A DNA stretch of 64,000 bases from Microbacterium murale (GTDB taxonomy: Bacteria; Actinomycetota; Actinomycetes; Actinomycetales; Microbacteriaceae): the NCBI RefSeq assembly GCF_014635185.1, contig NZ_BMCM01000001.1, positions 930,001 through 994,000 on the forward strand. The letters are read 5' to 3'. Under the pieces are notes generated by a model, which saw only the letters and a list, made by a program, of their open reading frames with translations, was not told where the DNA came from and made no database searches. Both the position numbers and the translations under genes were made by a program. Position 1 is the stretch's first letter. Each line of letters starts with the position of its first letter. Below, one piece after another: positions 41,664-49,340 of the stretch.

Positions 41664-43847
41664 GTGAAACGGCGGGGGCAGTCAGTGACGCAGGAGAACA
41701 CGTCAGAGGAGAAGACCGGGCGGAACAGAGGAAGGTTGCGGTTCACCCGAGGTGGGCTCAGCATCCAATCCAAGCTTCTGATCATGCTGCTCGGTGTGAG
41801 TCTGGTCTCCTCCGTCGTCGTCGGTGCGATCGGATTCGTCAACGGCCGCGAGTCGCTGCATGCGGCCGCGATCGATCAGTTGACCACGATCCGCGAGATG
41901 CGCGCAGCGGAGATCACGGAAGCGATCGGCGACGTCAAGCTCGATGCATCATTGCATTCCCGCAACCTGAGCGCTCAGACGATCTCCGCCGAGTTGAACA
42001 CCGCTTTCGACGAACTGCAGCAGCAGGAGATCACACCTGAGCAGCAGGCGCTGCTGGAGGCGTACTACGCGGATGCCTTCATTCCCGAGTTGGAGGAGCG
42101 CACCGGGGATGAGTACGGCGATACCGCGTTCATCCCTGAGTCGAACGCCGGGAAGTATCTGCAGCTGCAGTACTCGATGGGGAACATCGACTTCGATGCG
42201 GACTACGACAAGCTGCTGAACCTGAACGACTCCGGCGATGGCACCACGTATGCGCAGGCGGCCGGTCGCTACGGCGACTACTTCACCCGACTCATCGACC
42301 AGGCCGGTTATGAAGACGCGCTTCTGCTCAACCTCGAGGGCGATGTCGTGTTCTCGGCGTACAAGGGCGCCGACCTCGGAACGAACCTCAACACCGGGCC
42401 GTATCGCGACACCGCGTTCGCGCAGACCTACCGCGACACCATCGCCACGAATTCCGTCGATGCCGTCGGCATCACCGACTTCGAACGCTGGGTCCCCTCC
42501 ATGAACGTCCCGACGATCTGGGTGATCTCGCCGGTGGGCAATGACAGCCGCGTCACGGGGGCCATCGCCTTCCAGGTGTCGCTCGACACCATCAACGACG
42601 TGATGACCGGTGGGGAGCAGTGGAAGGAGCAGGGGCTCGGAGACTCCGGTGAGGTGTATCTCGTCGGACGTGACGATCTCATGCGCAGCACCTCGAGGCT
42701 CCTCTTCGAGGATCCGGAGGCCTACGCGCAGCGAGCGACGGACGGCGGAACAGCGCCGAGCATCGCGGAGCGCGTGATGGAGATCCGTGGTCCTGTGCTT
42801 CTCCAACCCGTCACGACATTCGCCGTGGAAGAGGCGCAGGCAGGTCGTTCCGGCACCACACAGGGGCCCGGATACCTCGGCCAGGACAGCGTGACCGCAT
42901 ATGCGCCACTGGAGATCGAGGGCCTCGACTGGGTGATCATCGCGCGCATCGACTCCACCGAGGCATTCGCTCCCGTCACGGACTTCACCCGCAATGTGCT
43001 GCTGTCCCTCCTGGGCATCCTGCTCGGCGTCTCCTTGCTGTCGCTGCTGCTCGCCCAGGTCTTCACCCGTCCGATCCATCGTCTGGTCGGAGCGGTGCAC
43101 CGAGTCGCCGAGGGCGATCTCGATGTGCAGGTGCCTCAGGGCTCGCGGGACGAGTTCGGTGAGCTCGGCAGCGCCTTCAACGACATGGCGTCGAGTCTGC
43201 GGATCAAACAGGAGCTCATCGAGGAGCAGCAGAAGGAGAACGAGAAGCTGCTGCACACGCTCATGCCCGAGAGTGTCGCGAACAAGTACAAGCAGGGCGA
43301 CGAGGCGATCTCGGAGGCTCATGAGAACGTCTCCGTCGTGTTCGCCGAACTCGTCGGATTCGATGAGCACGCCCGTGGGCTCTCTGCCGAGGAGGAGATC
43401 GGACAGCTCAACACCCTCATGCGCGGCTTCGACGAGGCCGCCGAGAAGGCAGGGGTGGAGAAGGTGCGCACACTCCACGGCGGTTATCTGGCTTCGTCGG
43501 GCATGGTGATCCCGCGGGTGGACAACGTGCGTCGCAGCGTGGAGTTCGCTCGGAACCTCGTCGGAGTGATCGACCGGTTCAACGTGCAGAACGGCACGTC
43601 TCTTGCGCTGCGCGCCGGTGTCGATTCCGGAACAGTGACGAGCGGACTCGTCGCCCGCACCAGCCTCGCCTACGACCTGTGGGGCGACGCCGTGAACCTC
43701 GCGTATCGCGTGCGCTCCGTGACGGGGGAGCCCGGAATCTACGTCAGTCAGACCGTGCGGGATCGCACCCAGGAGCTCGTCGACTACGTCGAGGCGGGCA
43801 CAGTCGAGTCGCAGGGCAGGACCGAGACCGTGTGGAAGGTGGTGTGA
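41664..43847 (+). CDS. Membrane sensor with HAMP and class III cyclase-like domain (eroded metal site)
   Basis: A 727-residue protein. Helix 1 spans about 36-60, an extracellular sensor of about 385 residues follows (dCache-like), then helix 2 at about 444-466, a HAMP linker (FTRPIHRLVGAVHRVAEGDL) and a class III nucleotide cyclase-like domain from about 553. Compared with canonical enzymes the first metal aspartate is E562 (FAELVGF), the second is G606 (TLHGGYL instead of GD), and the base-selecting lysine is R602. D671, N678 and R682 (YDLWGDAVNLAYR) are kept. Catalysis is therefore doubtful. GTG 41664 is used; GTG 41685 is possible. One base separates it from the channel gene. Confidence 0.85.
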   Translation: MKRRGQSVTQENTSEEKTGRNRGRLRFTRGGLSIQSKLLIMLLGVSLVSSVVVGAIGFVNGRESLHAAAIDQLTTIREMRAAEITEAIGDVKLDASLHSRNLSAQTISAELNTAFDELQQQEITPEQQALLEAYYADAFIPELEERTGDEYGDTAFIPESNAGKYLQLQYSMGNIDFDADYDKLLNLNDSGDGTTYAQAAGRYGDYFTRLIDQAGYEDALLLNLEGDVVFSAYKGADLGTNLNTGPYRDTAFAQTYRDTIATNSVDAVGITDFERWVPSMNVPTIWVISPVGNDSRVTGAIAFQVSLDTINDVMTGGEQWKEQGLGDSGEVYLVGRDDLMRSTSRLLFEDPEAYAQRATDGGTAPSIAERVMEIRGPVLLQPVTTFAVEEAQAGRSGTTQGPGYLGQDSVTAYAPLEIEGLDWVIIARIDSTEAFAPVTDFTRNVLLSLLGILLGVSLLSLLLAQVFTRPIHRLVGAVHRVAEGDLDVQVPQGSRDEFGELGSAFNDMASSLRIKQELIEEQQKENEKLLHTLMPESVANKYKQGDEAISEAHENVSVVFAELVGFDEHARGLSAEEEIGQLNTLMRGFDEAAEKAGVEKVRTLHGGYLASSGMVIPRVDNVRRSVEFARNLVGVIDRFNVQNGTSLALRAGVDSGTVTSGLVARTSLAYDLWGDAVNLAYRVRSVTGEPGIYVSQTVRDRTQELVDYVEAGTVESQGRTETVWKVV

Positions 43848-43848
43848 G

Positions 43849-45273
43849 ATGACCGAGGCGTTCCAGGACGGCTGGGCATGGTGGGTGATCGCGCTCGCCG
43901 TAGGAGTGCCGGTTCTGCTCGTGGTGCTCACCGAGGTGATCGGCACCCTGACGCGACGGAACAACCCCGTCGCCGGTCCGCTGCGGCTGCTGCGCAACTG
44001 GGTGGTCCCGGCCGGCGCAGTGCTCGCACTGCTGGCCTTCGCGATCCAATCGCCTGCCGACCAGGTATGGGTGCGGGTCGTGGCGACCGTGTTCGGATTC
44101 CTCGTGATCCTGCTCGTGCTCTCGTCGTTCAACGTGGCGCTCTTCGCGAACGCCGCGCCAGGATCGTGGCGGGACCGCATTCCGACGATCTTCGTCGAGA
44201 TCGCCCGGCTCGCCCTGGTGGTCGTCGGTCTCGCTCTGCTGTTCTCCTGGGTGTGGGAGGCGGACGTCGGCGGACTGATCACCGCGCTCGGCGTCACTTC
44301 GATCGTGATCGGCCTCGCGTTGCAGAACGCCGTCGGCGGCGTGATCTCCGGACTGCTGCTGTTGTTCGAGCAGCCGTTCAAGATCGGCGACTGGCTCGAC
44401 ACCGGCGGCGTGAAGGGGCGCGTCGTGGAGGTGAACTGGCGTGCCGTGCACATCAAGACCGGTGCCGGCATCCAGATCGTGCCGAACTCGACCCTGTCCG
44501 GAGCATCCTTCACGAACATGAGCGAGCCGGAGGGACCGTATTTCGCGACCACGTCCGTGAGCTTCTCGACTGACGATCCGCCGCACGAGGTGATGGCGCT
44601 GCTGCTGGAGATCGCAGACGCGTTGCCGATGCGGTTGCGCGAACCGCGAGCATCCGTCGACTACGCCGGTGGCGGTGCCTACGGTGTGTCGATTCCGGTC
44701 GCCGGCCCCGCCGATGCCGGACGAGCGCTCTCGATGTATCTGTCCTGGCTCTGGTACGCCTCGCGCCGCCGGAAGTTCGCTCTCGACGGCGACTCCACCG
44801 ATCCGCTCGCCGAACCCCAGCGCCTCGTCGAGGCTCTGGCGGTGATCGCACCGACTCTGCACCTGCGCGAGGAGGATACCGAATCGCTCCTCGCCTCAGC
44901 CCGGCTGGAACGCTACGGCGTCGGCGAAGTCGTCCTGCCGGCGGGAGTCATTCCCGATGAGGTGAAGATCGTGGTGTCCGGAAGGGCCGTCCTCTCGCTC
45001 GATGTCGACGGCGGAAGGATCGACTTCGCCGGAGCGGACACGGGCGATCTGATCGGTCAGACCGCACTCACACGCGAGCGCACTCAGGCGGTCACGGTCG
45101 CGGGGGAGATCCTCACCGTCGTCGTGATCCCTCTCGCGACCGTGGATAGCCTGATCCGGACGCGGCCGAGGCTAGCTGCCGAGATCGGCGCGTCACTGGA
45201 GCTCAAGCGGAAACTCGCGGCTGAGACGCTGGCGGGTCTCGGCGTCGAGCAGAGTCGACTCCTCGGGCGTTGA
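43849..45273 (+). CDS. MscS-type channel with C-terminal cyclic-nucleotide-binding-like domain
   Basis: A 474-residue protein. Four or so helices lead to the MscS pore helix and beta domain (GLALQNAVGGVISGLLLLFEQPFKIGD; VNWRAVHIKTGAGIQIVPNS). After the alpha/beta region, residues about 345-440 resemble a cNMP-binding domain (LERYGVGEVVLPAGVIPDE; GDLIGQTALTRERTQAVTV), with the usual phosphate-cassette glutamate replaced by glutamine. Such bCNG channels are a known MscS subgroup, gated by nucleotide rather than tension alone. The ATG is 1 bp after the cyclase-like gene stop, so the two are coupled. Confidence 0.87.
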   Translation: MTEAFQDGWAWWVIALAVGVPVLLVVLTEVIGTLTRRNNPVAGPLRLLRNWVVPAGAVLALLAFAIQSPADQVWVRVVATVFGFLVILLVLSSFNVALFANAAPGSWRDRIPTIFVEIARLALVVVGLALLFSWVWEADVGGLITALGVTSIVIGLALQNAVGGVISGLLLLFEQPFKIGDWLDTGGVKGRVVEVNWRAVHIKTGAGIQIVPNSTLSGASFTNMSEPEGPYFATTSVSFSTDDPPHEVMALLLEIADALPMRLREPRASVDYAGGGAYGVSIPVAGPADAGRALSMYLSWLWYASRRRKFALDGDSTDPLAEPQRLVEALAVIAPTLHLREEDTESLLASARLERYGVGEVVLPAGVIPDEVKIVVSGRAVLSLDVDGGRIDFAGADTGDLIGQTALTRERTQAVTVAGEILTVVVIPLATVDSLIRTRPRLAAEIGASLELKRKLAAETLAGLGVEQSRLLGR

Positions 45274-45319: not shown

Positions 45320-46051
45320 TCAGTGTCTGTGCTGCTGCTGGCGGAACAAGTCCGCCTGGAAGCGATAGGCATCTCCGCGATAGCGGTTGACGCCGAGTAG
45401 CACCGGGGTTCCGTCGGCGACGTACGCGGTCTCTTCTCCGACGAGCACGGGGGAGCCGACACTCGCTCCGAGGAGTTTCGCGAGCGGAGCGTCAGCGATG
45501 GCCGCGGTGACGCTGTACGCGCTGCGATGGATGGCGACGTCGCATTCGTCACGCAGTAGCTCGTAGAGCGAGTGGTCAGTGAGATCGATGTCCATAAGTG
45601 CGCGTGCGCGCTGCTCCGGGAGGACCACGACATCGAAGCAGACCGGATTTCCGTCGAGGCCACGCAGGCGATCGATCTGGATGACCGGCGAAGTCGGAGC
45701 GATCCGGAGACGATCTGCCTCGTCGATGGTTGCCGGACGGACTTCGCGACGCCGCACTGTGGACGTCGGTCGAAGTCCGCGCGCCAGAGCCATTTCCGTG
45801 AACGACTGGAGCGTGCTTGGCGGCTCGCCGACGACTCGCGGCGGCACGAACCAGCCGCGCTGAGCGGAGCGACTGACACGTCCCTCGGCTTCGAGCGCAC
45901 CGAGAGCGGCACGTAGCGTCGACCGGCTGACGCTGATGCGCAAAGCGAGATCGCGCTCCCCTGGCAAGCGCGTCCCGGGCGCGAAAACGCCGAGCGCGAG
46001 ATCCTGAGACAGGTGTTCGTATGCCTGCGCGGCGGCCGGGGTCAATACCAC
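45320..46051 (-). CDS. GntR-family regulator with UTRA domain (HutC subgroup)
   Basis: A 243-residue regulator: winged helix (YEHLSQDLALGVFAPGTRLPG... LRISVSRSTLRAALGALEAEG) and a UTRA effector domain (SVIQIDRLR-like strand, TDHSLYELLRDEC, VLVGEETAYVADGTPV). UTRA domains sense sugar phosphates and similar ligands. The GTG at 46051 is chosen because the winged helix begins within 10 residues; longer frames run through the promoter. It diverges from the glycoside importer operon and likely represses it. Confidence 0.87.
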   Translation of the reverse strand: MVLTPAAAQAYEHLSQDLALGVFAPGTRLPGERDLALRISVSRSTLRAALGALEAEGRVSRSAQRGWFVPPRVVGEPPSTLQSFTEMALARGLRPTSTVRRREVRPATIDEADRLRIAPTSPVIQIDRLRGLDGNPVCFDVVVLPEQRARALMDIDLTDHSLYELLRDECDVAIHRSAYSVTAAIADAPLAKLLGASVGSPVLVGEETAYVADGTPVLLGVNRYRGDAYRFQADLFRQQQHRH

Positions 46052-46109
46052 GACGACAACATACCACGACGCCCATCTGGATCGATTTATCGCCGAAGTG
46101 GTATTTGAC
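46041..46109. promoter_or_regulatory. GTGGTAT half-site cluster between gntR and the sugar operon
   Basis: GTGGTAT occurs three times: twice on the minus strand (at about 46045-46051 and 46061-46067, the first as GTGGTATTGAC) and once on the plus strand (GTGGTATTTGAC, 46098-46109). The plus copy contains TTGACT (46105-46110), a plausible -35 for the importer operon. The first minus copy overlaps the gntR start codon. Confidence 0.45.
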
Positions 46110-46209
46110 TGGTGCAACTGGTCCATTGGTGTTAGCGTTCGAGATGTTCTCGGAGCCCGACTCCGCAGACCCTCTCGAGCAATACCCGACCACCACGATG
46201 GAGTGAACG

Positions 46210-47559
46210 ATGTTGTCGAAGAAACTGCGCGCCGTAGGCGCGCTTTCTGCAGGTCTGGCCGCAGCCTTGGCATTGTCCGCCTGTGCTCCGGGCGGCGGCG
46301 CCACGCAGAGTTCAGGGCCCACTGACGTCTCGGACGACGTCGCCGGCGCCGGGGACGTCACACTGAAACTCTCCGACTTCTGGGGCTCAGCCGAGGAGGA
46401 GTGGATCACCACTCTGATCGAGAAGTTCGAGAAGAAATATCCCAACGTCACAATCGAGCGCACCCGTGAGGATTGGGGACAGCTGACCAGCACACTGAAC
46501 CTGCAGCTGCAGGACACCGGCGGCCCCGACATCGCATCCGCGAACAACGGGTGGTCGTCGCTGGGCACCCTGGCAAAGGGCGGGCTCGTGCTCAACCTCG
46601 ACGCCTACGCCGACCTGTACGACTGGAACGACGAGGTGCCGACGACGATCGCCCGTCAGAACCAGTTCACGAGCGACTTCAAGACGATCGGCGAGGGCGC
46701 GTGGTTCGCGACTCCACTCGCTCGGGCCTCCCTCATCGGTGTCTACTACAACGCCGACATGCTGGATGACCTCGGGATCGAGGCGCCCGGCAGCCTCGAT
46801 GACCTCGAGGATGCCGCAGCCGAGATCAAGGCGGCCGGCAAAGTTCCGTTCAGCTACAGCGGCCTCGATGGGAACACGGCGGCGCTGCTCGGTCTTCAGT
46901 CGCTGTACGGTTCGGCTGACGACATCAACGACTTCGTCTACGGCAGTGAAGATGTGACCGCAGCGGACACCGGCTTCAACGACGCTGCGACCACGCTGAA
47001 GAAGTGGGGCGACGACGGCTGGCTGATGCCGAACTTCGAGGGCCTGGACTACCAGACCTCGCTCGCCAACTATCTCGACGGCGACAGCGTCTTCCGCTTC
47101 GAGTACACCGGTTCGCTCGGCCTGTCGGGTGACCAGCTCGATGAGTTCGGATACATCCAGCTGCCGCAGGTAGACGACGACTCCACGGTCGGCGTGGGCG
47201 CAGCGCCCGGCGCCATGGTCATCTCGGCCAAGTGCGAGCACCCTGACGTCGCCGCAGCGTTCCTCGACTTCCTGATGTCTGAGGAGGCGAGCCAGACGGC
47301 CGTCGACCTCGGTCTGGTTCCGATGCTCAACGATGTCGAGACCCCAGACTCGCTCAGCCAGAGCGGCGAGGCCGCGGCGACGTCCACCCTCGACTCCGAC
47401 GACGGCTATGTACCCTACTTCGACTGGGCGAGCCCCACGATGCTGGACATCCTCTCGCAGAACACGCAGTTGCTGATGGCCGGCAAGACGACCCCCGAGG
47501 ACTTCACGAAGGCTGTCGACGACGACCGGAATGCCTTCCTCGCCGAGTCCGGATCCTGA
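46210..47559 (+). CDS. Sugar ABC importer, extracellular binding lipoprotein
   Basis: A 449-residue family-1 solute-binding protein. Signal peptide with lipobox LSAC (C25); mature protein begins with a Gly/Ser linker, then the maltose-binding-like fold (DVTLKLSDFWGSAEEEWITTLIEKFEKKYP..., TPLARASLIGVYYNADML, MVISAKCEHPDVAAAFLDFLMS). It captures an oligosaccharide or glycoside outside the cell. GGAG lies 6 bases before the ATG. It is first of a five- or six-gene rightward operon; no ATPase gene is included, so a shared MsmK/UgpC-type ATPase elsewhere is expected. Confidence 0.9.
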   Translation: MLSKKLRAVGALSAGLAAALALSACAPGGGATQSSGPTDVSDDVAGAGDVTLKLSDFWGSAEEEWITTLIEKFEKKYPNVTIERTREDWGQLTSTLNLQLQDTGGPDIASANNGWSSLGTLAKGGLVLNLDAYADLYDWNDEVPTTIARQNQFTSDFKTIGEGAWFATPLARASLIGVYYNADMLDDLGIEAPGSLDDLEDAAAEIKAAGKVPFSYSGLDGNTAALLGLQSLYGSADDINDFVYGSEDVTAADTGFNDAATTLKKWGDDGWLMPNFEGLDYQTSLANYLDGDSVFRFEYTGSLGLSGDQLDEFGYIQLPQVDDDSTVGVGAAPGAMVISAKCEHPDVAAAFLDFLMSEEASQTAVDLGLVPMLNDVETPDSLSQSGEAAATSTLDSDDGYVPYFDWASPTMLDILSQNTQLLMAGKTTPEDFTKAVDDDRNAFLAESGS

Positions 47560-47562
47560 CAG

Positions 47563-48531
47563 ATGGCCATCCCCGATCTCGGTGTCGCCACGGGCCATCG
47601 GCCAGGCGGCGACACCACGGCCACCGAGTTGATCGTCACTGGGGGGAAACGCCGCCGCACATCGCGTGCACGTCGTCGCTCTCGTCGGGCGGGGCTGCTC
47701 TTCGCGCTTCCGGGGCTGGCGCTGTATGCCGGTGTCGTGCTGTGGCCGATGGTGCAGTCGATTCAGTACTCGTTCTACAAGTGGGACGGTGTCTCGGCAT
47801 CCGTGTGGGTCGGGTTCCAGAACTACATCAACTTCTTCACCGATCCCGTGCTGCGCTCGACGCTGGGAAACGTGCTCGTGCTGCTGATGTTCTTCGCCGT
47901 GCTGCCCATCGCGCTCGGGCTCTTCTCGGCTGCGTTGATCACACGCTCGCGTCAGCCGGGCATGGCCGTGTATCGCTGGATCTTCTTCCTGCCGCAGGTA
48001 TTGACCAGCGTCGTCACGGCGCTCCTGTTCAAGCGCATGTACGCGCCGGAAGGACCGATCAATGAAGCACTGCGCGCAGTCGGGCTGGATGTCCTCGCCA
48101 AGAACTGGCTAGGTGACTTCACCTGGGCGCTCCCGGCAGTCGGCGTCATCGGAACCTGGGTCACCTTCGGATTCTGCATGGTGCTGTTCATCTCGGGCGC
48201 ATCCTCCATCTCGACGGATCTCTATGAGGCGGCGCGCATGGACGGCGCAGGACCGATCCGGGAGTTCGTGTCGGTTACCCTCCCCGGCCTCCGTGGCCAG
48301 ATCGCGGTGGCGCTGACACTCACCATCACAGCGGCGCTGCGCGCGTTCGACCTGATCTGGATCACGACGCGTGGGGGTCCTGGTACCTCGACGCAGACAC
48401 CGGCTGTCGCGCTGTACAAGGCGGCGTTCGTGAACCCGAACGTGGGTCAGGCGGCTGCCATCGGCGTCGTGATGGCCGTGCTGTGCCTCGCGATCGCTCT
48501 CATCATCACTCGGGTCTCGGAAAGGGAGTAA
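47563..48531 (+). CDS. Sugar ABC importer, permease 1
   Basis: A 322-residue permease of the MalF/UgpA type: basic cytoplasmic N-terminus (KRRRTSRARRRSRR), six helices, and the ATPase-contact loop YEAARMDGAGPIREF. The ATG is 3 bp after the binding-protein stop. Forms the channel with the next permease. Confidence 0.9.
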   Translation: MAIPDLGVATGHRPGGDTTATELIVTGGKRRRTSRARRRSRRAGLLFALPGLALYAGVVLWPMVQSIQYSFYKWDGVSASVWVGFQNYINFFTDPVLRSTLGNVLVLLMFFAVLPIALGLFSAALITRSRQPGMAVYRWIFFLPQVLTSVVTALLFKRMYAPEGPINEALRAVGLDVLAKNWLGDFTWALPAVGVIGTWVTFGFCMVLFISGASSISTDLYEAARMDGAGPIREFVSVTLPGLRGQIAVALTLTITAALRAFDLIWITTRGGPGTSTQTPAVALYKAAFVNPNVGQAAAIGVVMAVLCLAIALIITRVSERE

Positions 48532-48533
48532 TC

Positions 48534-49340
48534 GTGTCATCGCGTTCCGAGAAACTCTGGAACTACATCATCCTCACCGTCATGGCCCTGATCGTGCTCT
48601 GGCCGGTCGGCACGTTCCTCGCCGCCTCTCTCAGTCCCGATCGTGCAGGGCGCCCGTCAGGCGACCTGCAATGGGGCAACTTCATCACCGCGTGGAACAG
48701 CGCCGAGTTCGCGCGCTCGATGACGGTGTCGCTCATCATCACGGTGGTGGTGGTGATCGTCGGCGTGCTGCTGGCACTGCTCGGGGGGTACGCGTTCGGT
48801 GTGCTGGGGGTGGTCGGCGAACGATTCCTGTTCCCGGTGATCCTGCTCGGGATGATGGTCTCGCTCGAGGTCATCATCGTCCCGCTCTACTACCAGTTCC
48901 GCACGATAGGTCTCACGAACAACCTGTTCGGCGTGATCCTCATCCACCTGGGCATGGGCGTCCCGTTCGGCGTCTTCTGGATGCGCGCTGCCTTCCGAGC
49001 GCTCCCGCGTGCCGTCTTCGAGTCGGCTGAGCTAGACGGCGCAGGACCGCTGCGGATGCTGTGGTCGATCGCCGTCCCGAACCTCATGCCGGCCGTATAC
49101 ACGCTGATCCTGCTCAGCTTCATGTGGACGTGGAACGACTACTTCCTCTCGCTGGTGTTCCTGCACGGCGACAACCAGACGGCGACGGTCGCGCTGGGAG
49201 TGTTCCAGGGCAAGTTCGTCACACAGATCAACCTCATGGCGGCCGGCGGTCTCATCGTCGCGGCGCCCGTACTCGTCCTGTACGTGATCTTCCAGCGCAA
49301 GTTCATCTCCGGCATGCTCGCCGGTGCCATCAAGGAATGA
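48534..49340 (+). CDS. Sugar ABC importer, permease 2
   Basis: A 268-residue MalG/UgpE-type permease with six helices and the contact loop FESAELDGAGPLRML. The GTG at 48534 follows AAAGGGAG by 5 bases and the previous stop by 2 bp. The stop overlaps the next gene start (ATGA). Confidence 0.9.
   Translation: MSSRSEKLWNYIILTVMALIVLWPVGTFLAASLSPDRAGRPSGDLQWGNFITAWNSAEFARSMTVSLIITVVVVIVGVLLALLGGYAFGVLGVVGERFLFPVILLGMMVSLEVIIVPLYYQFRTIGLTNNLFGVILIHLGMGVPFGVFWMRAAFRALPRAVFESAELDGAGPLRMLWSIAVPNLMPAVYTLILLSFMWTWNDYFLSLVFLHGDNQTATVALGVFQGKFVTQINLMAAGGLIVAAPVLVLYVIFQRKFISGMLAGAIKE

What the first reader, a model, noticed from the sequence alone, without database searches (positions are those of the whole stretch)
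41664..45273. Cyclase-like sensor with missing metal residues, coupled to a nucleotide-gated-type MscS channel
A one-base gap joins a membrane sensor carrying a class III cyclase-like domain to an MscS channel carrying a C-terminal cNMP-binding-like domain, suggesting one signalling unit: extracellular signal, HAMP, cyclase-like output, channel. However the cyclase has E562 for the first metal aspartate, G606 for the second and R602 for the base-selecting lysine, while D671, N678 and R682 remain. The channel's binding cassette has Q in place of the usual glutamate. So either the pair makes and reads an unusual nucleotide, or the cyclase-like domain only binds a ligand and touches the channel directly. 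Class III cyclases and bCNG channels are known separately; I know of no described system of this form.
Basis: partly seen in the sequence, partly recalled or inferred. Interest (0 to 1): 0.72.

Follow-up and report, generated by a model that had tools for sequence, protein, structure and literature searches.

The report
Pseudo-cyclase receptor paired with MscS channel
Two neighbouring genes, one for a surface receptor built on a dead-looking cAMP-making enzyme and one for a pressure-type ion channel, are inherited as one unit, which suggests a bacterial channel switched by a receptor without the usual chemical messenger.

Summary
A dCache-like/HAMP/class III cyclase-like receptor (41664-43847) sits one base before an MscS channel with a cNMP-binding-like (CNB) tail (43849-45273). 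The named residues are as stated.

The genes are a strict unit. Of 299 genomes of the window's family (Microbacteriaceae by its named relatives), 44 carry the receptor and the same 44 the channel, adjacent. The best 80 relatives kept from a capped GTDB scan all have the channel just downstream.

None of 105 paired receptor rows (a few duplicates) keeps both metal aspartates or the base lysine. Of 17 unpaired class III cyclases tested, 16 keep the whole set. The transition-state Asn drifts, while R602, D671 and a D/E at 562 are held. The channel cassette lacks its Glu in every intact row. No other class III cyclase or CNB domain was found in this genome.

So the pair most likely works without cAMP: a pseudo-cyclase receptor biases an MscS-type channel, probably by contact. 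Action and contact are inferred. M. tuberculosis Rv2435c/Rv2434c look like the same kind, so the genes are known; I found no account of the linkage and catalytic loss in the papers I could search.

The parts
41664..43847 (+). receptor gene: TM1, extracellular dCache-like region, TM2, HAMP, coil, class III cyclase-like domain (727 aa, GTG start, TGA stop)
   Evidence: ORF and sequence; Pfam; AlphaFold2 model mean pLDDT 81.3
42285..42944 (+). dCache_1-like sensor domain, residues 208-427
   Evidence: Pfam 40.8 bits, under the curated cut-off of 45
43047..43202 (+). HAMP domain, residues 462-513
   Evidence: Pfam 60.8 bits
43311..43826 (+). class III cyclase-like (pseudo-cyclase) domain, residues 550-721
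   Evidence: Pfam 103.8 bits; solved relatives include mammalian AC9 and bacterial class III ACs
43347..43349 (+). E562, first metal position (Asp in active enzymes; E or D in the paired relatives)
   Evidence: E 55, D 50 of 105
43467..43469 (+). R602, base-selecting lysine position
   Evidence: R 104, H 1, K 0 of 105
43479..43481 (+). G606, second metal position
   Evidence: never D in 105 (G 50, N 18, Q 16, S 9, E 8, A 3, T 1)
43674..43676 (+). D671, base-binding aspartate
   Evidence: D in 105 of 105
43695..43709 (+). N678 and R682, transition-state positions; N drifts (22 changes), R is Q in 18 of 105
43849..45273 (+). MscS-type channel gene with C-terminal cNMP-binding-like domain (474 aa)
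   Evidence: AlphaFold2 model mean pLDDT 84.1; Foldseek to MscS/YnaI and to CNB domains
44200..44523 (+). MscS TM helices, pore helix and beta domain, residues 118-225
   Evidence: Pfam MS_channel_1st (118-159, under its cut-off) and MS_channel_2nd (161-225)
44911..45162 (+). cNMP-binding-like domain, residues 355-438
   Evidence: Pfam PF00027; Foldseek to M. loti CNB domain TMt 0.84 and PKG I beta TMt 0.80
45058..45060 (+). Q404, at the phosphate-binding-cassette Glu position
   Evidence: never E (Q 57, L 24, H 10, S 5, T 4, gap 3, other 5 of 108 rows)
45073..45075 (+). R409, conserved residue of the replaced cassette motif G-[QLH]-T-A-L-T-R
   Evidence: R in 99 of 108 rows; 3 changes
45085..45087 (+). 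Q413, at the cassette Arg position; freely varying
   Evidence: R in 1 row; 35 changes on the tree (81st percentile of the domain)

Best explanation
The two genes encode a receptor-operated channel. A dimeric membrane receptor reads an external signal through its extracellular domain and passes it through HAMP to a cyclase-like domain that no longer makes cyclic nucleotide. That domain acts as a conformational output module and changes the opening of the neighbouring MscS-type channel, most likely by touching the channel's cNMP-binding-like tail, which itself lacks the canonical cAMP-binding residues. Supported here: the genes are an obligate pair in the genomes searched; the catalytic set is incomplete in every paired row examined; in most host genomes tested no other class III cyclase was found. 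Inferred: that the domain is inactive, that it acts on the channel, that it does so by contact, and the nature of the external signal.
For: Pairing: 13 of 35 genomes of the genus carry 14 receptor and 14 channel copies, and the other 22 have neither; 13 of the 14 were confirmed adjacent by tblastn and the 14th by its coordinates. Family, 299 genomes: 44 with the receptor, the same 44 with the channel, same contig and strand, profile ends 17-83 bases apart. Phylum, 396 genomes: 13 with a strong receptor match and the same 13 with a strong channel match, plus 3 distant cases also adjacent. The best 80 loci kept from the GTDB scan all have the channel downstream. Frames overlap in 50 of 96 deduplicated loci, L160 left out, most often by 4 bases (22). 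Catalytic loss: 0 of 105 have D at the second metal site and 0 of 105 have the lysine, against 16 of 17 unpaired class III relatives with the full D-K-D-D-N-R set (the 17th has R for K). Position 678 changes 22 times on the tree, more than 73% of the domain's columns. Cassette Glu position never E, Arg position R in 1 row. No class III cyclase match beyond the pair in this genome or in 45 of 50 other pair-bearing genomes tested; none in 22 of 22 congeners without the pair. The domain is not decaying: 31 of 172 cyclase-like columns change at most once.
Against: No interface was modelled or measured. The inter-protein co-variation scan was dominated by phylogeny, and cyclase-domain/CNB column pairs were not enriched among the top 100 (0.7-fold). 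The held R602/D671 pair and the D/E at 562 in 105 of 105 suggest that a purine or metal pocket may still be used, so the domain may be more than a mechanical relay. The window itself keeps D671, N678 and R682. The 8 unpaired MscS-CNB proteins from plasmids also lack the cassette Arg (0 of 8 keep it) and 2 of 8 lack the Glu, so the cassette losses are not special to this pair. 19 of 50 pair-bearing genomes have further CNB-domain genes.
Confidence: 0.5

Rival explanations
1. Nucleotide-sensing version: the pseudo-cyclase domain still binds a purine nucleotide without catalysis, and the channel tail binds a nucleoside or other small ligand, so the pair combines an outside signal with the cell's purine or energy state.
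For: R602 in 104 of 105 and D671 in 105 of 105 (base-binding positions) and D/E at 562 in 105 of 105 are held while 606 and 678 drift. Among the CNB matches is a cAMP-independent PKA regulatory subunit of Trypanosoma brucei (6h4g), a precedent for a CNB domain that changed ligand (its nucleoside ligands are recalled, not from a call).
Against: The held residues could be structural. The distant triads keep K602 and D671 in one receptor of each pair but neither in the other. The cassette positions drift between many residues (20 and 35 changes), which is odd for one new ligand.
Confidence: 0.22
2. The receptor is an active cyclase with unusual metal chemistry, making an unusual cyclic nucleotide that the channel reads.
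For: D or E at 562 throughout; D671, N678 and R682 remain in the window; E at 606 in 8 of 105 relatives.
Against: No D at 606 in 105 of 105; the Asn at 678 is replaced in 41 of 105 and the Arg at 682 in 19 of 105; I saw no relocated metal site in the alignments, though none was searched for systematically. The CNB cassette is not held either.
Confidence: 0.08
3. The domain is a C2-like half that completes a heterodimeric cyclase with another, C1-like class III protein, as in mammalian adenylyl cyclases.
For: The pattern in the window resembles the second catalytic half of mammalian AC9: metal positions lost, base Asp, Asn and Arg kept (alignment).
Against: No other PF00211 match in this genome nor in 45 of 50 other pair-bearing genomes. 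Positions 678 and 682 are not held in the family.
Confidence: 0.03
4. The functional order is reversed: the channel senses membrane tension or crowding and its tail regulates the receptor, whose real output is unknown.
For: The pairing is symmetric and gives no direction. MscS cores are tension sensors in known members (recalled).
Against: The receptor has an extracellular input region and HAMP, and no other output domain besides the pseudo-cyclase.
Confidence: 0.07

Closest known systems
Rv2435c/Rv2434c of Mycobacterium tuberculosis (described only; not aligned here)
   Same: Rv2435c is reported to have a double Cache domain and is called an adenylate cyclase (PMC4822843, passage seen). Rv2434c is called a membrane protein involved in cAMP signalling, in garbled wording that I take to mean cyclic-nucleotide-binding (PMC11205783, passages seen). 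The locus numbers are adjacent on one strand. Contigs named Mycobacterium or Mycolicibacterium carry the same pair.
   Different: The M. tuberculosis sequences were not compared here. The 8 rows with mycobacterial names have D at 562, N (one S) at 606 and Q at 682. M. tuberculosis is said to encode 17 class III cyclases (abstract of PMC2447327), while this genome shows one match.
bCNG channels of the MscS superfamily (Caldwell 2010, Malcolm 2012; titles seen in a reference list)
   Same: MscS core followed by a C-terminal cNMP-binding domain.
   Different: Cassette Glu and Arg are absent, and the channel is bound genetically to a receptor. Of 8 plasmid-borne MscS-CNB genes that I picked, 0 had a cyclase domain in the fetched stretch and 6 kept the Glu.
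Class III adenylyl/guanylyl cyclases (AC9, Rv1625c/Cya)
   Same: Fold and sequence of the output domain.
   Different: Both metal Asp and the base Lys are absent in the window.
Trypanosoma brucei PKA regulatory subunit, cAMP-independent (6h4g)
   Same: A CNB domain among the Foldseek matches whose entry title calls it cAMP-independent.
   Different: A kinase subunit, not a channel; found here by fold only.

Membership tests
class III nucleotidyl cyclase (active enzyme) | class III catalytic fold | tested here: met
   PF00211 103.8 bits; Foldseek to class III cyclases, e.g. TMt 0.80 with 5oyh_E
class III nucleotidyl cyclase (active enzyme) | two metal-binding aspartates | tested here: not met
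   E562 and G606 in the window; second Asp in 0 of 105 paired rows; 17 of 17 unpaired controls have both
class III nucleotidyl cyclase (active enzyme) | base-selecting lysine | tested here: not met
   R602; K in 0 of 105, in 16 of 17 controls. One otherwise complete control has R, so this loss alone may be tolerated
class III nucleotidyl cyclase (active enzyme) | base Asp and transition-state Asn and Arg | tested here: met
   D671, N678 and R682 present in the window; N and R not held in the family
class III nucleotidyl cyclase (active enzyme) | cyclic nucleotide synthesis | not testable with these tools
   needs an enzyme assay
MscS superfamily channel | MscS pore helix and beta domain | tested here: met
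   MS_channel_2nd 70.1 bits; Foldseek to MscS and YnaI-MscS chains from E 2.5e-12
MscS superfamily channel | tension-gated conductance | not testable with these tools
   needs electrophysiology
bCNG channel (cyclic-nucleotide-gated) | C-terminal CNB fold | tested here: met
   PF00027 31.3 bits, over the cut-off, though 27.2 against 27.5 on the protein alone; Foldseek TMt 0.84 with 4muv_B
bCNG channel (cyclic-nucleotide-gated) | phosphate-binding cassette Glu and Arg | tested here: not met
   Q404 and Q413; Glu in 0 of 108 rows, 3 of them cut there, Arg in 1. Unpaired controls: Glu 6 of 8, Arg 0 of 8
dCache/HAMP transmembrane receptor | HAMP after the second TM helix | tested here: met
   HAMP 60.8 bits; hydropathy peak 441-471
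dCache/HAMP transmembrane receptor | dCache sensor domain | tested here: inconclusive
   dCache_1 40.8 bits against a cut-off of 45; mostly confident model between residues 40 and 440
Rv2435c/Rv2434c-type pair | sequence orthology to the M. tuberculosis genes | not tested
   H37Rv was not fetched; other mycobacteria carry the pair

The most novel reading that the evidence does not exclude
A bacterial receptor-operated ion channel: an external ligand, read by a membrane receptor whose former cyclase domain has become a purely conformational (or nucleotide-sensing) output, opens or closes an MscS channel through its equally disarmed CNB tail. A second-messenger pair would have collapsed into direct contact while both domains stayed under selection.
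Probability: 0.45. Interest if true: 0.8.

Novelty: new variant of a known kind. Interest (0 to 1): 0.6.

Why it matters
If true, an extracellular cue controls an MscS channel without a diffusible messenger, which would give some of the poorly understood CNB-tailed MscS channels a defined input. It would also warn that annotated 'adenylate cyclases' of this type in Actinobacteria, mycobacteria included, may make no cAMP, and it offers a natural set of pseudo-enzymes whose partner is known from gene order. The question is directly testable with two proteins.

Tried and rejected
Co-variation of 562/606/678 with cassette position 404: no power or no signal. Inter-protein mutual information with 98 pairs (effective number about 45): read as following clade splits; left as inconclusive.

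A fused receptor-channel ORF in L160 (Leifsonia aquatica): the tail of the cyclase-like domain is out of frame against its relative L139, so it looks like a frameshift, real or technical, not a domain fusion; not used as evidence.

Third conserved gene in the unit: ORF clustering of the flanks of 80 loci found none in more than 23 of 80. The largest cluster merged shadow ORFs, so this is a rough test.

MSMEG_4279 was first taken as a relative of Rv2435c; the abstract of PMC5562752 in the listing treats it alongside Rv2212, so it was dropped.

Literature: ten searches gave no paper that I saw describing the pair's linkage or catalytic loss. The 2004 actinobacterial cyclase survey (PMC2447327) contains Rv2435c 10 times and Rv2434c 3 times according to the search listing, but only its abstract and references were held for reading, so it may already note the pair. 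Papers were seen as listings, abstracts or passages; none was read whole.

A read-through model of both proteins as one chain was considered and not run, because the structure tool reports no inter-domain error.
Full report
OBSERVATION. The receptor carries Guanylate_cyc (103.8 bits), HAMP (60.8) and a dCache_1 match under its cut-off. The channel carries MS_channel_2nd (70.1) and a weak cNMP_binding match (over the cut-off). Hydropathy gives TM-like peaks at 33-61 and 441-471 in the receptor and about five in the channel's first 173 residues. AlphaFold2 models are usable: channel mean pLDDT 84.1, pTM 0.59; receptor 81.3, pTM 0.59, the latter poor at 601-619 and 661-669, near the active site. 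Foldseek places the channel with MscS and YnaI and finds CNB domains among its matches, and the receptor with class III cyclases.

PAIRING. In the genus, 13 of 35 genomes hold 14 full-length receptors, and the same 13 hold 14 channels (one channel, in G023, is cut by a contig end). tblastn shows the channel next to the receptor in the 13 loci held; the 14th copy is adjacent by coordinates. The other 22 genomes have neither. In 299 genomes of the family, drawn evenly, the receptor search (profile of the cyclase-like domain) and the channel search each hit 44 genomes once at E <= 1e-30. They are the same 44, on the same contig and strand, with the channel downstream and profile ends 17-83 bases apart. 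In 396 genomes of the phylum, 13 have the strong receptor match and the same 13 the strong channel match: four in the window's family and nine in one other family of the class, genus code g27; named contigs show that the pair occurs in mycobacteria. Three distant genomes (G087, G140, G361) also have the genes side by side, as receptor-channel-receptor triads. Two weak or partial channel matches (G210 at a contig end, G437) were not followed up. These searches score a limited number of candidates per genome, so very diverged single genes could be missed. Some of these are the same genomes as G handles. The channel is on the receptor's strand in 108 of 108 loci examined (duplicates included). 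After deduplication, and leaving out L160, 50 of 96 pairs overlap and 46 have gaps of 0-15 bases. Overlap at the join suggests translational coupling (inference).

CATALYTIC SET. On 105 aligned receptor rows (window included, the three triads left out, four exact duplicates and one partial duplicate included) the first metal position is E in 55 and D in 50. The base lysine is R in 104 and H in 1. The second metal position is never D. The base aspartate is D in 105. The transition-state Asn is N in 64, S in 33 and other in 8; the Arg is R in 86, Q in 18 and A in 1. No row has both metal aspartates or the lysine. As a control, 17 class III cyclases of the phylum not next to the channel, those fetched as loci out of 48 such hits listed, read D-K-D-D-N-R in 16 and D-R-D-D-N-R in 1. 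The other 31 hits were not tested. On a tree of 98 deduplicated rows built without the cyclase-like columns, 562 changes twice, 602 once, 671 never, 606 13 times and 678 22 times; the domain median is 11. So the catalytic Asn is not being kept, while two base-contact positions and one carboxylate are. The roles of these positions in class III enzymes are established knowledge; the window aligns with AC9, whose second half also lacks the metal residues. In the triads, one receptor of each keeps K602 and D671, two of these also keep D606, and the partners lack K602 and D671; none has a complete set.

CNB CASSETTE. The Glu position (404) is never E in 108 channel rows, triads included and 3 rows cut there (Q 57, L 24, H 10), and the Arg position (413) is R in one row, L108. 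R409 in the motif TALTR is held in 99 of 108. On the tree the Arg position changes 35 times (81st percentile of the domain) and the Glu position 20 times (40th). Control: of 8 plasmid-borne MscS-CNB genes that I picked from the 40 rows listed, none with a cyclase domain in the fetched stretch, 6 keep the Glu and none the Arg. The Arg loss is therefore not special to this pair, and the Glu loss only partly.

GENOME CONTEXT. This genome has one PF00211 and one PF00027 match, both in this pair. I tested 50 other pair-bearing genomes: 40 of the 43 (three below 90% completeness left out) plus 10 of 11 further ones (G023 left out). Of these, 45 have no PF00211 match beyond the pair; G010, G011, G396, G586 and G636 do. 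For PF00027, 31 of the 50 have only one match over the cut-off and 19 have more. None of the 22 congeners without the pair has a PF00211 match. Other cyclase classes were not searched. A class III partner for a heterodimer, and a class III source of cAMP, were thus not found here.

MECHANISM. The simplest reading is a receptor-operated channel: extracellular domain, HAMP, a pseudo-cyclase dimer and the CNB-tailed MscS channel, coupled without a diffusible nucleotide. The pairing and the loss of catalytic residues are shown. Inactivity, action on the channel and direct contact are inferred. A nucleotide-sensing variant is the main rival, because the base-contact pair and one carboxylate are held. 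The co-variation tests were uninformative.

KNOWN. M. tuberculosis Rv2435c is described as a dCache-bearing adenylate cyclase and Rv2434c as a membrane protein of cAMP signalling. Their adjacency is read from locus numbers, and that Rv2434c is an MscS-CNB protein is recalled. bCNG channels are known here by title from a reference list. I saw no text on the linkage or the catalytic loss in ten searches, but the 2004 survey could not be read in full. I therefore call this a new variant of a known kind, not a new category.

Noticed in passing
L191:3214-8914, L192:2819-8132, L193:1390-7174: Three distant genomes of the phylum carry receptor-channel-receptor triads. One receptor of each keeps the base lysine (two also the second metal Asp) and the other has lost most catalytic residues, so a heterodimeric receptor is possible.
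   Followed up: partly
L160, ORF from about 3564 through the channel: Leifsonia aquatica DSM 20146 has receptor and channel in one open frame because the end of the cyclase-like domain is frameshifted relative to L139; real change or sequencing error not settled.
   Followed up: partly
L049 and L050 (G011): One genome holds two copies of the pair about 115 kb apart, about 45% and 67% identical in the receptor to the window's, so two subtypes coexist.
   Followed up: no
L089: An unpaired class III cyclase with R in place of the base lysine but the other five catalytic residues intact.
   Followed up: no
L117 and L106: Contigs labelled Planococcus and Arthrobacter carry a pair about 68-74% identical to the window's Microbacterium-like pair; the labels may be wrong, or the pair was transferred.
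   Followed up: no
window 45320-49340: Right of the pair lies a regulator-like gene on the minus strand and then three genes that look like a sugar ABC transporter (binding protein and two permeases), judged by eye from the translations.
   Followed up: no
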